32,417 nt of DNA, taken from a virus. Positions 4,429 through 11,451 of this stretch are shown here, in pieces. Below the pieces are notes generated by a model. The model was not told where the DNA came from, searched no databases, and saw nothing but the letters and a program-made list of their open reading frames with translations. Position 1 is the stretch's first letter, and each line of letters starts with the position of its first letter. The stretch is taken from the IMG/VR virus record IMGVR_UViG_3300047551_002585, positions 1-32,417 of that record. One strand, written 5' to 3'. Position numbers and translations under genes: made by a program.

Positions 4429-4603
4429 AGAAGTAAACAGTCTGAACGGAGTTCGGCAATTTCTTTACGATCTGCTTGACCCCAAGAAAACTCCCCGTGT
4501 GCCACGAGAGGTTCGTCTCCGTGCACACAGGCTAGCCAAGCACTTTCCCATGCCTCATCGGATTGATGCCAAGTGGGAACGGGAGTTGGCTAAATATCAG
4601 TAA
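4412..4603 (+). CDS. BPSL0761-like small phage protein
   Basis: The 63-aa protein begins MTLPHEEVNSLNGVRQFLYD. The core FLYDLLDPKKTPRVPREVR followed by LRAHRLAKHFPMP resembles the small conserved family named after BPSL0761 (fLraLLdP..tprvP..vR..A..lLrHyP), whose function is unknown. It overlaps the preceding gene by 17 bases. Its own stop codon lies inside the 5' strand of the tmRNA helix P2 (AATGC, 4602-4606), so the gene and the tmRNA overlap slightly. Confidence 0.7.
   Translation: MTLPHEEVNSLNGVRQFLYDLLDPKKTPRVPREVRLRAHRLAKHFPMPHRIDAKWERELAKYQ
4590..4596 (+). promoter_or_regulatory. Late-promoter-like CTAAATA just before the tmRNA
   Basis: CTAAATA lies in the last codons of the 4412-4603 gene, a few bases upstream of the predicted start of the tmRNA acceptor piece. 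It matches the variant late motif seen at 872, 10560, 11448, 16347 and 16642, so the tmRNA may be made late in infection. No sigma-70 promoter is seen close upstream. Confidence 0.4.
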
Positions 4604-4662
4604 TGCTGTTGACGGCGGATAGAAACACGAACAGGACAGGGGTTCGATTCCCCTCGGCTCCA

Positions 4663-4785
4663 CTTCAAAACAGTTAGCGGCGTGGTTGAACACGCGGAGT
4701 TGACAAGACTCGCATCGGCGTAAAACGGTCTACTGAATTGACCGACGCAGCCGAACAGAAGGTGCAAATCCTTCCTAACTTTCTT
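4663..4785 (+). other. Structured intervening segment of the permuted tmRNA (tRNA-like)
   Basis: This segment joins the acceptor piece to the coding piece and would be removed on maturation. It is closed by AGTTAG (4672-4677)/CTAACT (4775-4780). It contains hairpins GCGTG/CACGC (4680-4695), GAGT/ACTC (4697-4711, 7-base loop) and GGCGT...ACGC with inner CGGTC/GACCG (4726-4744). There is also a T-arm look-alike: GAAGG, loop TGCAAAT, CCTTC (4758-4774), stacked directly on the closing stem as in a tRNA. The anticodon-like loop lacks U33 and the extra arm is 46 bases, so it does not look like a functional tRNA. Confidence 0.6.
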
Positions 4786-4882
4786 GGGGCTGTACAGGCA
4801 CTCGACTGGCGTGGAGTACAGAAGCAAGAGGCATTCGGGGTAGGCAACTCACCTCGTTAAAAACCAGTTGTAAACCATAATT

Positions 4883-4909
4883 GCCAACAGACTGGCAATG
4901 GCGGCTTGA
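4883..4909 (+). other. tmRNA tag reading frame (ANRLAMAA)
   Basis: From GCC at 4883 the frame reads Ala-Asn-Arg-Leu-Ala-Met-Ala-Ala and stops at TGA 4907-4909. Tags typically begin Ala-Asn and end with two small residues recognised by ClpXP-type proteases; this one has both features but is short (8 codons). The two other frames give a stop just before the region or a long peptide without the usual ending. Confidence 0.8.
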
Positions 4910-4949
4910 AGCCGTGGGGTCAGCCCACCCGCATCTGAACGGGCAGGAC

Positions 4950-4982
4950 GGGACGGCAGAAATGCCGTCCCCTCTTTGTTTA
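4950..4982 (+). terminator. Rho-independent terminator after the tmRNA
   Basis: GGGACGGCA (4950-4958), GAAA loop and TGCCGTCCC (4963-4971) form a perfect 9-bp stem, followed by CTCTTTGTTTAT. It closes the tmRNA transcription unit. Confidence 0.92.
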
Positions 4983-6121: not shown

Positions 6122-7183
6122 ATGAAGATTGAAGACGATGTAAAGTTGGATTTCGCTGATGTGCTGATTCGCCCCAAGCGTAGCACCTTGGAGAGTCGCA
6201 GCAAGGTGAATCTGAATCGCACCTTTAAGTTCAAGACCCACAGCGGTGAAGCCGTTTGGACAGGTGTGCCTGTCATGGCTTCCAACATGGACACCATCGG
6301 AACATTCCGCATGGCATCTGCTCTACAGCAGCACGGTGCACTCTGTGCTGTTCACAAGTATTACAGCAAGGACGAGTGGGACACCGAAATGTTTGGGTGG
6401 CTCCGGAACAATTCAGGGCAATGTGGAGTGGTATACACAATGGGTATGGGTGATGCCAACTCCAACATGAATGAAATTCAAAAGGCACAAGATATTCTTG
6501 ACACACACCGCCATATCCAATTTATTTGCATTGATGTGGCTAACGGATACACCGAGAAGTTTGTGCGATATGTGGAGTTTGTTCGCAAGACTTTCCCACG
6601 ACATGTCCTGATTGCAGGAAATGTGGTGACACGAGAAATGACCGAAGCCCTGATTTTGGCAGGTGCAAATATTGTCAAGATCGGGATCGGTCCAGGATCA
6701 GTCTGCACGACGAGAAAGGTTGCAGGTGTTGGCTACCCGCAACTGTCGTGCATCATGGAGTGTGCTGATGCCGCACACGGACTAGGTGGCTATGTGCTGT
6801 CGGACGGTGGATGCACCTGTCCCGGCGATGTAGCCAAGGCATTTGGAGCGGGTGCGGACTTTGTGATGATTGGTGGTATGTTTGCAGGCACAGACGAAGC
6901 CGCAGGCGAAAGCACCGAAGACGGCAAGGTGTTCTACGGAATGAGTTCCGCAGAAGCCATGAACAAGCATTCAGGAGGTGTGGCTACCTATCGTGCAGCC
7001 GAAGGCAAGCGGGTTGTGGTTCCCCATATCGGTTCGGTGGACGGCGTGATGCAGCAGATTCTTGGTGGTGTGCGTTCTGCTTGCACCTATGTGGGTGCGT
7101 CTCGTCTCAAGGACTTGAGCAAGTGCACAACTTTCATTCGGGTGAATCGTCAACTAAACACCGTGTGGGGTAACGAAGGCTGA
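6122..7183 (+). CDS. guaC: GMP reductase
   Basis: The 353-aa protein matches the E. coli GuaC pattern almost throughout: [19 protein letters not shown] at the N terminus, [24 protein letters not shown], the catalytic loop [20 protein letters not shown] with Cys195, then [20 protein letters not shown] and [15 protein letters not shown]. GuaC reduces GMP to IMP and ammonia with NADPH. IMP dehydrogenases of the same fold usually carry a CBS insert and are longer; the length and the C-terminal TTFIRVNRQ favour GMP reductase. The ribosome site GAAAGGAG is strong. With purA downstream it would turn GMP toward AMP. Auxiliary purine genes occur in marine T4-like phages, but guaC is unusual as far as I recall. 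Confidence 0.95.
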
Positions 7184-7999: not shown

Positions 8000-8254
8000 A
8001 TGAAGTATGATGTAGCCATGCACTTGCGAGAGCAGAGCAAACGAACAGACTTGCCCACCGATGTGATTCGCACATTCTCTGATGCGTATGCAGAGATTGT
8101 TCGTCTTGAAGATCGCATCAAGTCCTTTGAAGAAGGTTTTGAGGGCGGTTGCCATGTGTGCGAAAAGGTAGCAGACAAAAACGACGAACTTCGCAAAAGA
8201 TTGGAAGCACTTGACCGCCTCGCACAACTAGACGAAGAATTGGGGCTACAATGA
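8000..8254 (+). CDS. Coiled-coil protein with a CxxC pair
   Basis: This 84-aa protein begins MKYDVAMHLREQSKRTDLPT with ribosome site GGAG. Residues 35-84 are strongly helical (YAEIVRLEDRIKSFEEGFEG then DKNDELRKRLEALDRLAQLD), with a CHVC motif between them that might bind zinc in a dimer. Its last four bases overlap the purA start. The function is unknown. Confidence 0.65.
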   Translation: MKYDVAMHLREQSKRTDLPTDVIRTFSDAYAEIVRLEDRIKSFEEGFEGGCHVCEKVADKNDELRKRLEALDRLAQLDEELGLQ

Positions 8255-9243
8255 TTAACGGCGTTGATGTGGTGTACGGTTTGGCATGGGGTGACGAAGG
8301 CAAGGGCAAGGTGTCTGCTGCAATGGCTCCCAAGTACGATTGGGTGTGCCGTTGGAACGGAGGCCCAAACGCAGGGCACACCGTGTGGGTGAACGGCAAG
8401 AAGCACAAGACCCATATAATCCCTTCAGGCATTTTCGCAGGCAAGCGGTGCTTGATTGGGCCAGGCTGCGTGATTAACACCGACAAGTTTTTTGAAGAAA
8501 TTCGGTATCTTCGGAGTGAAGGTTTTGATACCAGTCTTGTCAAGATTTCACCTGCCGCTCATATCATTACTGCTGCACATATTGATTACGACACCAAGAA
8601 CCTGTCCCATCTAGGAACAACCAAGCAAGGTATTGCTCCGTGCTACGCAGACAAGATGCTGCGTTGCGGACGACGAGCAGCAGAGTACTTTATTTCTGAT
8701 TGGTTGTGGGACGGAGAGATGGACGGGCACATCCTGTGCGAAGGAGCACAGAGTGTTTGGCTAGACATAGATCACGGAGATTACCCGTATGTTACTAGCA
8801 GTTCTACTATGCCTTATGGGGCTTGTTCTATTGGCTTTTCCCCGAGAAAACTGAACAGGCTGATTGGTGTTGCCAAAGCCTACGACACCAAGAGCGGAAC
8901 CGATCCGCTATTCCCTGAAACCCTTTGGGAAGACCCGCAGATTGACGCACTTATCCGTGAGGGTGGCGAATACGGCACAACCACAGGGCGAAAGCGGCTT
9001 GCGAACTGGCTGAATCTAGACAAGTTGATTTCAGCAATTAAGTTGTCGGGTTGTTCTGAACTAATCATCAACAAGTGTGATGTGCTGTCTCGGGTTGGTG
9101 TGTTTAAACTAATTCACAACGGTGAAATAGTTGAGTTCAAGGATTTGGGTGGATTCAAAATGTATTTGGCTAAAGAATTGTCATACGGTAATATTCCTGA
9201 ACTTCACGATATTCGTTTCTCACACAACCCCGAGACTATTTGA
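8251..9243 (+). CDS. purA: Adenylosuccinate synthetase, short (archaeal/PurZ-like length)
   Basis: The 330-aa protein has the hallmarks of the family: WGDEGKGK at residues 13-20 with catalytic Asp15, NAGHT with His43, IPSGI, the GTTKQGIAP loop, EGAQSVWLDIDHGDYPYVTS, the substrate loop GEYGTTTGRKR and the guanine-binding NKCD. The enzyme couples IMP, aspartate and GTP to make adenylosuccinate. E. coli PurA has about 430 residues; this one lacks about 100, like archaeal PurA and phage PurZ. PurZ uses dGMP for 2-aminoadenine genomes, and as I recall replaces the catalytic Asp by Ser, which is not the case here. With guaC upstream, a GMP to IMP to AMP route is the simpler reading. The start overlaps the preceding stop (ATGA). 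Confidence 0.92.
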   Translation: MINGVDVVYGLAWGDEGKGKVSAAMAPKYDWVCRWNGGPNAGHTVWVNGKKHKTHIIPSGIFAGKRCLIGPGCVINTDKFFEEIRYLRSEGFDTSLVKISPAAHIITAAHIDYDTKNLSHLGTTKQGIAPCYADKMLRCGRRAAEYFISDWLWDGEMDGHILCEGAQSVWLDIDHGDYPYVTSSSTMPYGACSIGFSPRKLNRLIGVAKAYDTKSGTDPLFPETLWEDPQIDALIREGGEYGTTTGRKRLANWLNLDKLISAIKLSGCSELIINKCDVLSRVGVFKLIHNGEIVEFKDLGGFKMYLAKELSYGNIPELHDIRFSHNPETI

Positions 9244-10178: not shown

Positions 10179-10622
10179 ATGAACGCAAAGCGAATTCAAA
10201 GACTGTTGGAATACGCTTATCCTCTGTGCTTGAACATCAAGCGGCAGAAAAAGCACCTTTCCCTGATACTTCGGCGTGACCGAATTGTTGCGATTGGTCG
10301 CAATCGCTTCAAAACTCACCCTGTTGCGAAGGAAAAGGGCTACATGTTTGAAGAAATGCACTCGGAATTGGACGCATTTTTGAAATTGGACTCTCCTGAA
10401 CGGGATTTGGTGCTTTTCAATGTGCGTTTTAACAGTTTGGGGCAGATGCGGATGGCTAGACCGTGCGAACGGTGTATGCCGTGGTGCTACGGAGCGTTTT
10501 CGGAGATATGGTACACCACAAATGAGGGTGTAATGCTCCACGGGAACACCCTTTTTCCGCTAAATATAGTGAAACCCCGACAGGAGAACGATGAAAATGA
10601 AGAAATTCTCACAGTTTCTTGA
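10179..10622 (+). CDS. Zinc-dependent deaminase-like protein (cytidine/dCMP deaminase superfamily)
   Basis: The ATG at 10179 is the first start after the terminator; the longer frame from 9972 is a read-through of other genes. The 147-aa protein has His61-x-Glu63 in MHSELDAFLKL and Pro95-Cys96-x-x-Cys99 in RPCERCMPWC, the HxE and PCxxC zinc and catalytic signature of the superfamily, with strands LSLILRRDRIVAIGRN before and LVLFNVRFN between. Ser replaces the usual Ala in HAE. The substrate (dCMP, a base in nucleic acid, or another amine) cannot be assigned. No ribosome site is visible; its 3' end overlaps the next gene by 32 bases. Confidence 0.75.
   Translation: MNAKRIQRLLEYAYPLCLNIKRQKKHLSLILRRDRIVAIGRNRFKTHPVAKEKGYMFEEMHSELDAFLKLDSPERDLVLFNVRFNSLGQMRMARPCERCMPWCYGAFSEIWYTTNEGVMLHGNTLFPLNIVKPRQENDENEEILTVS
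10560..10566 (+). promoter_or_regulatory. Late-promoter-like CTAAATA
   Basis: CTAAATA lies inside the end of the deaminase gene, 24 bases before the ATG at 10591, whose ribosome site is CAGGAGA. It matches the variant late motif found at several other starts. Confidence 0.55.
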
Positions 10623-11451
10623 CCAAAACGGACTAAACGAGTGGCTTGATCGCAAAGACGCGACCGAAACGCCACTGGTTGAAGCCAAATTGTCCCGCGT
10701 CTTCCAATATGTGGAGGACGACACCAAAGATTTTGGTATTGTGAGTGCTTTCCGTGGCGAAAACTCACGCGAAAACAACAAAAAACTCCACGATGACCTC
10801 AAGAAGCGTGTTCGTGACATGGGTTACGGCTATATTGAGATGAAGGGCGGCTACCAAGAAGAAGGTGGCGTTGTTGAGGAGTTGAGTCTGCTCATCCCCA
10901 ACATCAAAAAAGAAGAAATTGTCAAGTTGGGTCGCCACTACAAGCAACACTCGGTGATGTACAAGAACGATCAGGACTTTTACTATATCGGCACAAACGA
11001 AAGTGCTGGAATTGGTAAAGTTCTCATGCGTTTCAAGAAGGGCGAAGGACAAAACAACCTTGAACTCGCCAAGCACAAGGTGGTGCAGTTCTTCTCACAA
11101 CTCCGCAAAGGCCCACACAGCGGCAAGAAGTTTGTGTTCAATGTGAAAGACGAACCACAGCAAGGCGGCGAGCAAGAAAAGAGTGGTGAAAGTGCTGCCG
11201 CTGCACAGAAGCACCGTCCCGGTGATGTGTGGAAGACCTCTAGCGGTCTGTGGGGTGCTATGGATGATGAAGGCAACTACGAGTATTACGAAGATCAAGA
11301 GGCTGCTCGTAAATACGCTAAAAAGCACAAGAGCGGATACCGCATTCAAGAGCGTGAGGAATGGGGATTTGCGAAGGCTGCGTATCTGCGTCGTGGTGAA
11401 GACCCCAAGTGGATCACGATTTTTGAGGAATTGGAAGCAGAAAACTCCTAA
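10591..11451 (+). CDS. DUF3293-like phage protein, 286 aa
   Basis: The start is set by CAGGAGAACG upstream. The N terminus MKMKKFSQFLDQNGLNEW resembles the leaders of late T4-like proteins. Residues 45-165 carry FGIVSAFRGENSRENNKK, GYIEMKGGYQEEGGVVEE and QHSVMYKN...FYYIGT, which resemble the small alpha/beta family DUF3293 (from memory, moderate). A Gly/Ser/Ala/Gln-rich linker (QQGGEQEKSGESAAAAQK) leads to a C-terminal helical domain with GNYEYYEDQEAARKYAKKH. A late-type motif precedes it. It might be a virion or packaged protein; the function is unknown. Confidence 0.7.
   Translation: MKMKKFSQFLDQNGLNEWLDRKDATETPLVEAKLSRVFQYVEDDTKDFGIVSAFRGENSRENNKKLHDDLKKRVRDMGYGYIEMKGGYQEEGGVVEELSLLIPNIKKEEIVKLGRHYKQHSVMYKNDQDFYYIGTNESAGIGKVLMRFKKGEGQNNLELAKHKVVQFFSQLRKGPHSGKKFVFNVKDEPQQGGEQEKSGESAAAAQKHRPGDVWKTSSGLWGAMDDEGNYEYYEDQEAARKYAKKHKSGYRIQEREEWGFAKAAYLRRGEDPKWITIFEELEAENS

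What the first reader, a model, noticed from the sequence alone, without database searches (positions are those of the whole stretch)
4600..4949. Phage-encoded circularly permuted tmRNA with a readable 8-codon tag
The acceptor half (T arm, CGGCTCC) precedes the coding half (GGGGCTG start). The two halves form a complete 7-bp acceptor stem and a P2 helix (GCATT/AATGC) across 123 bases. A standard pseudoknot ends 12 bases before a GCC resume codon, the tag is ANRLAMAA with the stop in a hairpin loop, and a terminator follows. Permuted two-piece tmRNAs are established in alpha- and betaproteobacteria and some cyanobacteria. I know of one-piece tmRNAs in a few large phages, but a permuted one in a T4-like phage is, to my knowledge, little or not described. 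It could replace or retag the host system during infection.
Basis: partly seen in the sequence, partly recalled or inferred. Interest (0 to 1): 0.95.

Follow-up and report, generated by a model that had tools for sequence, protein, structure and literature searches.

The report
Phage two-piece tmRNA with tRNA-like insert
A T4-like virus of bacteria carries a gene for a two-piece ribosome-rescue RNA (a kind already known from a few marine phages), and the spacer between its two halves, normally discarded, holds a second, tRNA-shaped RNA that seems to have been passed between related phages.

Summary
Window 4602-4909 (+) scores 72.8 bits against Rfam tmRNA_permuted (cut-off 47). Every anatomical claim holds, and ten homologues from related viral contigs show strong covariation (20 of 51 pairs changed on both sides; P2 5 of 5; G3-U70 invariant; tag ANRLAMAA, ANELAMAA or ANRMAMAA).

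The novelty claim does not hold. The T4-like phages Melnitz, Mosig and HTVC008M carry permuted tmRNAs over the same cut-off. The Melnitz paper reports them and counts 53 predicted two-piece tmRNAs in phage genomes.

It is a separate conserved RNA of about 109 nt with the arm order of a class-II tRNA. A covariance model built only from it finds tRNA-Ser genes as its best other hits. It occurs in two phage clades but is missing from close relatives, whose spacer is 6-12 nt. It is 92% identical between clades whose tmRNA bodies are 72% identical, so it has probably moved horizontally. One carrier has also swapped the tRNA-like domain for an alphaproteobacterial type and has an HNH-type endonuclease next door.

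Verdict: new variant of a known kind. Function and processing are untested.

The parts
4602..4662 (+). tmRNA acceptor half: P2 5' strand (4602-4606), T arm (4638-4654), acceptor 3' strand CGGCTCC (4655-4661), discriminator A (4662). CCA is not encoded.
4663..4785 (+). Intervening sequence (123 nt) between the two tmRNA halves
4672..4780 (+). Conserved tRNA-like RNA inside the intervening sequence: closing stem 4672-4677/4775-4780, D-like hairpin 4680-4695, hairpin 4697-4711, long variable-arm-like hairpin 4715-4754, T-like arm 4758-4774
4786..4882 (+). tmRNA coding half, 5' part: acceptor 5' strand GGGGCTG (4786-4792), D-like region, P2 3' strand (4831-4835), pseudoknot PK1 (4836-4870)
4883..4909 (+). 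Tag coding sequence GCC...TGA, peptide ANRLAMAA, overlapping hairpin 4881-4898; stop codon in the loop of hairpin 4903-4913
4914..4944 (+). 3' pseudoknot (GTGGG/CCCGC 4914-4918/4928-4932; GCCC/GGGC 4923-4926/4941-4944) with invariant CCCGCATCTGAAC
4950..4971 (+). Intrinsic-terminator-like hairpin followed by a T-rich tail

Best explanation
4602-4949 is a circularly permuted tmRNA gene of a T4-like phage. Shown: the gene order, the helices and pseudoknots with covariation, the alanine-identity G3-U70 pair, the resume codon, the tag and the terminator. Inferred from what is established for permuted tmRNAs: one precursor is transcribed; host RNase P and 3' processing enzymes remove the spacer; CCA is added; and two pieces of about 61-64 and about 165-185 nt pair through acceptor and P2. 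These would be charged with alanine, bind host SmpB, rescue stalled ribosomes during infection and add ANRLAMAA for proteolysis. The spacer is not filler. It carries a separate conserved RNA of about 109 nt (4672-4780) with class-II tRNA topology, which tmRNA maturation would release. It is absent from close relatives and has been exchanged between phage clades, so the spacer works as a tolerated insertion site for a cargo RNA. The cargo has a shortened anticodon-like loop and no encoded CCA, so it is probably not a decoding tRNA. The most likely roles are a processing aid or a tRNA-like decoy or selfish element. This last step is inference.
For: tmRNA: RF04321 72.8 bits; homologues over the cut-off in related phage contigs; 51 pairs, 98.8% of cells paired, 20 pairs with two-sided changes, 0/500 shuffles; tags ANRLAMAA, ANELAMAA and ANRMAMAA, with synonymous changes in the tag hairpin. 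Spacer RNA: same six-helix minimum-energy fold in 4/4 copies, z about -3.0 to -3.4; 124/124 cells paired and 4 pairs with two-sided changes. A model built only from the four copies (R1) finds tRNA-Ser genes as best other hits in 1.1 Mb (29.0 bits, E 4.5e-5; another at 20.8 bits), aligned arm for arm; a sequence-only model finds none. Exchange: win-L245 insert 91.8% against body 72.4%, while win-L250 insert is 92.7% against body 96.9%. Relatives without the insert have spacers of 6-12 nt.
Against: No transcript, processing or charging data exist. Only four insert copies are known, and three of its six helices never vary, so they have no covariation support. Neither ARAGORN nor the Rfam tRNA model scores the insert. 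Sequence-only alignment to tRNA-Ser does not exceed shuffles (best 127; null mean 106, sd 8, maximum 138), so descent from tRNA-Ser is unproven. E-values of R1 are rough.
Confidence: 0.78

Rival explanations
1. An ordinary permuted phage tmRNA whose spacer is only a vertically inherited, structured linker. The insert was lost several times and has no function of its own beyond helping processing.
For: Spacer lengths of viral permuted tmRNAs vary widely (5-197 nt, median 77, 29 cases). The short spacers of L248/L249 (CTAAATCTTTCT in L249) look like a remnant of the insert's 3' end (CTAATCTTTCT in L275), which suggests loss.
Against: The insert is 92% identical between clades whose bodies are 72% identical, and within clade A it evolves faster than the body (92.7% against 96.9%). 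Slow evolution alone therefore does not explain the pattern. Its fold is tRNA-like, not a simple hairpin.
Confidence: 0.3
2. The tRNA-like domain plus spacer is a target and cargo of homing-endonuclease-driven gene conversion. An HNH enzyme cuts tmRNA genes and co-converts the flanks, which spreads the insert and replaces tRNA-like domains.
For: L275 has an endonuclease-like ORF (PHROG endonuclease E 3.2e-17; endonuclease VII; HNH) directly between tmRNA and tRNA-Gly. Its tRNA-like domain is swapped to the alpha type (55% identity to clade B) while its mRNA-like domain is 92-95% identical to clade B.
Against: No such ORF was seen next to the insert in the window or in L154. Pfam does not recognise the L275 ORF. 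Cleavage is untested.
Confidence: 0.2
3. Decaying tmRNA captured from a host, no longer functional.
For: Phages can pick up host ssrA fragments (discussed in PMC9004378). The window copy scores lower than many other viral copies and is missed by ARAGORN.
Against: Covariation, tag conservation with synonymous changes and an invariant G3-U70 across ten phage copies show selection on the RNA.
Confidence: 0.06

Closest known systems
Permuted two-piece tmRNA of the T4-like phages Melnitz, Mosig and HTVC008M (PMC9004378; checked)
   Same: T4-like phage, permuted gene order, RF04321 over the cut-off
   Different: Those match the alpha model (RF01849). The window copy has a beta-like tRNA domain (TTCGATT T loop), an 8-codon tag and a tRNA-like RNA in the spacer. 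The Melnitz spacer holds a possible ORF instead, and the Mosig and HTVC008M spacers are 47 and 52 nt.
Betaproteobacterial permuted tmRNA (Rfam RF01850)
   Same: Overall architecture; the Rfam consensus tag region (ANDEHFAMAA) resembles AN..LAMAA
   Different: 38.9 bits, below the cut-off of 84; tag two codons shorter; 3' region diverged
Class-II tRNA, tRNA-Ser (Rfam RF00005)
   Same: Spacer RNA has the same arm order, a long variable arm and a T arm close to that of phage tRNA-Ser
   Different: 5-nt anticodon-like loop, different D hairpin, no encoded CCA, longer variable arm, not detected as a tRNA
tmRNA with a group I intron in the T-loop region
   Same: tmRNA gene interrupted by extra RNA (form listed in PMC11915505)
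   Different: Here the extra RNA lies in the permuted spacer, is too short for a group I intron and has no Rfam intron match

Membership tests
Permuted tmRNA (RF04321) | Covariance score over the curated cut-off | tested here: met
   72.8 bits against 47
Permuted tmRNA (RF04321) | Acceptor 3' half precedes the 5' half, separated by a spacer | tested here: met
   4602-4662, spacer 4663-4785, then 4786 onward
Permuted tmRNA (RF04321) | 7-bp acceptor with G3-U70 alanine identity | tested here: met
   G-U at pair 3 in 10/10 homologues
Permuted tmRNA (RF04321) | P2 and pseudoknot supported by compensatory change | tested here: met
   P2 5/5 pairs changed on both sides; PK1 S1 1/5; 3' pseudoknot second stem 3/4
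Permuted tmRNA (RF04321) | Alanine resume codon, short ORF, stop, hydrophobic AA end | tested here: met
   GCC...TGA, ANRLAMAA; relatives ANELAMAA and ANRMAMAA
Permuted tmRNA (RF04321) | Mature RNA in two pieces; alanylated; SmpB-dependent trans-translation | not testable with these tools
   needs RNA from infected cells
beta_tmRNA (RF01850) | Score over the family cut-off | tested here: not met
   38.9 against 84; L245 55.6
tRNA (for the spacer RNA 4672-4780) | Recognised by the tRNA model or ARAGORN; 7-nt anticodon loop with U33 | tested here: not met
   no hit; anticodon-like loop is GACAA
tRNA-like RNA, class-II topology (for the spacer RNA) | Acceptor, D, anticodon, long variable and T arms in tRNA order | tested here: met
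   same fold in 4/4 copies; R1 aligns to tRNA-Ser arm for arm; sequence-only control negative

The most novel reading that the evidence does not exclude
The spacer of permuted phage tmRNA genes is a docking site for mobile cargo RNAs. Here it carries a phage-specific tRNA-like RNA (Ser-type, with a defunct anticodon) that is excised and released by tmRNA maturation and acts on its own, for example as a decoy for tRNA-directed host defences or as a processing device. It spreads between phages by co-conversion, helped in at least one lineage by an adjacent HNH-type endonuclease.
Probability: 0.3. Interest if true: 0.78.

Novelty: new variant of a known kind. Interest (0 to 1): 0.55.

Why it matters
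Permuted tmRNA spacers are treated as waste. A conserved, horizontally exchanged tRNA-like RNA inside one, and a tmRNA whose tRNA-like domain was swapped from beta-like to alpha type while tag and spacer cargo stayed, show that phages reshuffle tmRNA modules. It gives a testable case for why phages carry tmRNAs (host matching of the tRNA domain, cargo delivery, escape from nucleases) and a new tRNA-like RNA to assay.

Tried and rejected
Insert as a known Rfam RNA: no match at E up to 5 other than tmRNA and two weak off-target hits. Insert in bacteria, isolate phages or plasmids: exact 21-mer core absent from 84,980 genomes; blastn hits in phages and plasmids only at E about 4, chance level. 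L339 matched a relaxed insert pattern but appears to lie in coding sequence and is taken as chance. Weak R1 hits in L191, L204 and others are a different tRNA-like RNA. Direct sequence descent from tRNA-Ser: suggestive only, not beyond shuffles. Host by bacterial tmRNA tag pattern: no genome matched. The L251 spacer was folded; z -1.1, no clear structure. Outer pairing of the spacer with GGGG in the single-sequence fold conflicts with the acceptor and was dropped. One R1 search over 52 other permuted-tmRNA viral loci found no second family member. The glutamine riboswitch reported with the Melnitz tmRNA lies downstream of its tag, not in the spacer.

Full report
1. The window. It is a 32.4-kb virus record from a T4-like phage: gp6-like baseplate wedge (best isolate match Melnitz, 37% identity), gp25-like wedge, hub, tail-tube cap, head closure and ssDNA-binding proteins. 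No isolate phage shares the tmRNA region by blastn. Seven tRNAs are annotated around it.

2. The observation. Rfam tmRNA_permuted covers 4602-4909 (+) end to end at 72.8 bits, cut-off 47. The acceptor has two G-U pairs, one of them G3-U70. CCA is not encoded (A then CTTC).

3. Homologues. Pattern and protein searches of viral contigs followed by RF04321 searches gave a family of permuted tmRNAs in related phages. Ten distinct bodies were aligned: 51 pairs, 98.8% of cells paired, 20 pairs changed on both sides, none of 500 shuffles as good, and sliding the partners gives 39-48% pairing. P2 varies at all five pairs and always compensates. The tag is AN(R/E)(L/M)AMAA in all.

4. What is already known. 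Melnitz, Mosig and HTVC008M carry permuted tmRNAs (113.4, 93.6 and 90.6 bits). PMC9004378 describes the Melnitz one and reports 53 predicted two-piece tmRNAs among 133 unique phage tmRNAs. The RF04321 model itself is described in PMC11915505, which lists 79 bacteriophage tmRNA sequences of all forms. In IMG/VR, 53 of 100 records, nearly all picked by a T-arm motif, have a permuted tmRNA over the cut-off; some may be host DNA. So the kind is known; this is a new, beta-like lineage of it.

5. The spacer. Relatives have spacers of 6 nt (L246, L243, L244, L273), 12 nt (L248, L249), 96 nt of unrelated sequence (L251), or 122-134 nt homologous to the window's (L250, L245, L275). The homologous part, about 109 nt, folds identically in all four copies: a 6-bp closing stem, 2 nt, a 5-bp hairpin, 1 nt, a 5-bp hairpin, a long two-part hairpin, a 5-bp arm with 6-7-nt loop (TGCAAAT in three copies), and 0 nt back to the closing stem. 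That is the order and spacing of a class-II tRNA. All 124 cells pair and four pairs change on both sides; the sample is small and three helices are invariant. A covariance model from these four copies was run over 1.1 Mb of phage loci. After the insert's own copies, the best hit was tRNA-Ser(UGA) of L189 (29.0 bits, E 4.5e-5). In a smaller search other tRNA-Ser genes scored 20.8 and 15.4 bits, all aligned arm for arm. The same alignment used without structure finds none of them, so the resemblance is structural; sequence-only comparison is suggestive but within the shuffle range. The insert is not recognised as a tRNA; its anticodon-like loop is 5 nt (GACAA).

6. History of the insert. In clade A (window and L250) insert and body are 92.7% and 96.9% identical. 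Between clades A and B (window and L245) the insert is 91.8% and the body 72.4% identical. The insert's history is thus decoupled from the gene that carries it, which points to horizontal exchange. L246, 97-98% identical to L245 in the tmRNA body, lacks the insert. L249's short spacer resembles the insert's 3' end, which suggests loss in clade A.

7. A swapped tRNA-like domain. L275 belongs to clade B by its mRNA-like domain (92-95% identity) and by its tRNA order, and carries the insert. Its tRNA-like domain is alphaproteobacterial in type (T loop GGCAGUA, AUAGGAUCGA; RF01849 58.5 bits, cut-off 50) and only 55% identical to clade B. An endonuclease-like ORF in the opposite direction lies between this tmRNA and tRNA-Gly; L245 and L246 have only a few bases there. 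Homing by such an enzyme would explain both the swap and the spread of the insert, but this is inference.

8. Mechanism. Shown: a complete, selected tmRNA gene and a conserved tRNA-like RNA in its spacer. Inferred: cleavage into two pieces, CCA addition, alanylation, SmpB-dependent tagging, and release of the spacer RNA. Its role (processing aid, decoy or selfish cargo) is open.

9. Score. The named finding is a new member of a known kind. The spacer RNA and the module swap raise it to a new variant, with moderate interest (0.55).

Noticed in passing
L275:827-1717: Chimeric tmRNA: alpha-type tRNA-like domain with a beta-like phage tag domain and the shared spacer insert; endonuclease-like ORF (1187-1717 +, PHROG endonuclease E 3e-17) directly adjacent.
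   Followed up: partly
L345 from position 1584 (Melnitz MZ577095.1, tmRNA at 44761-45093): The 145-nt spacer of the Melnitz tmRNA contains the start and most of a possible 54-aa ORF preceded by GGAG (MFKWLSKTRLVV...), another hint that spacers carry cargo.
   Followed up: no
L191:3564-3655, L204:3514-3605 and nine further loci (L197, L196, L199, L205, L206, L211, L202, L203, L193): A different, highly conserved 92-nt tRNA-like RNA with the same TGCAAAT T loop and a large invariant anticodon-like loop (ATTTACCCCAAGC), about 4.4 kb upstream of the GuaB-like gene in several of the phages; ARAGORN calls no tRNA there in the four loci checked.
   Followed up: partly
L251:1501-1781: A clade A tmRNA with a quite different 96-nt spacer of unknown nature.
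   Followed up: partly
window 6122-7183 and 8251-9243: IMPDH/GMP reductase and adenylosuccinate synthetase (PurA motif WGDEGKGK; the PHROG description suggests the 2-aminoadenine PurZ group). Possible purine or DNA-modification module.
   Followed up: no
window 10591-11451: N-terminal part matches S-adenosylmethionine lyase (PF23780, E 5.5e-11), possible anti-restriction function.
   Followed up: no
L246, L243, L244, L273: Permuted tmRNA genes with a spacer of only 6 nt, so the acceptor stem is closed by a tiny loop in the precursor.
   Followed up: no
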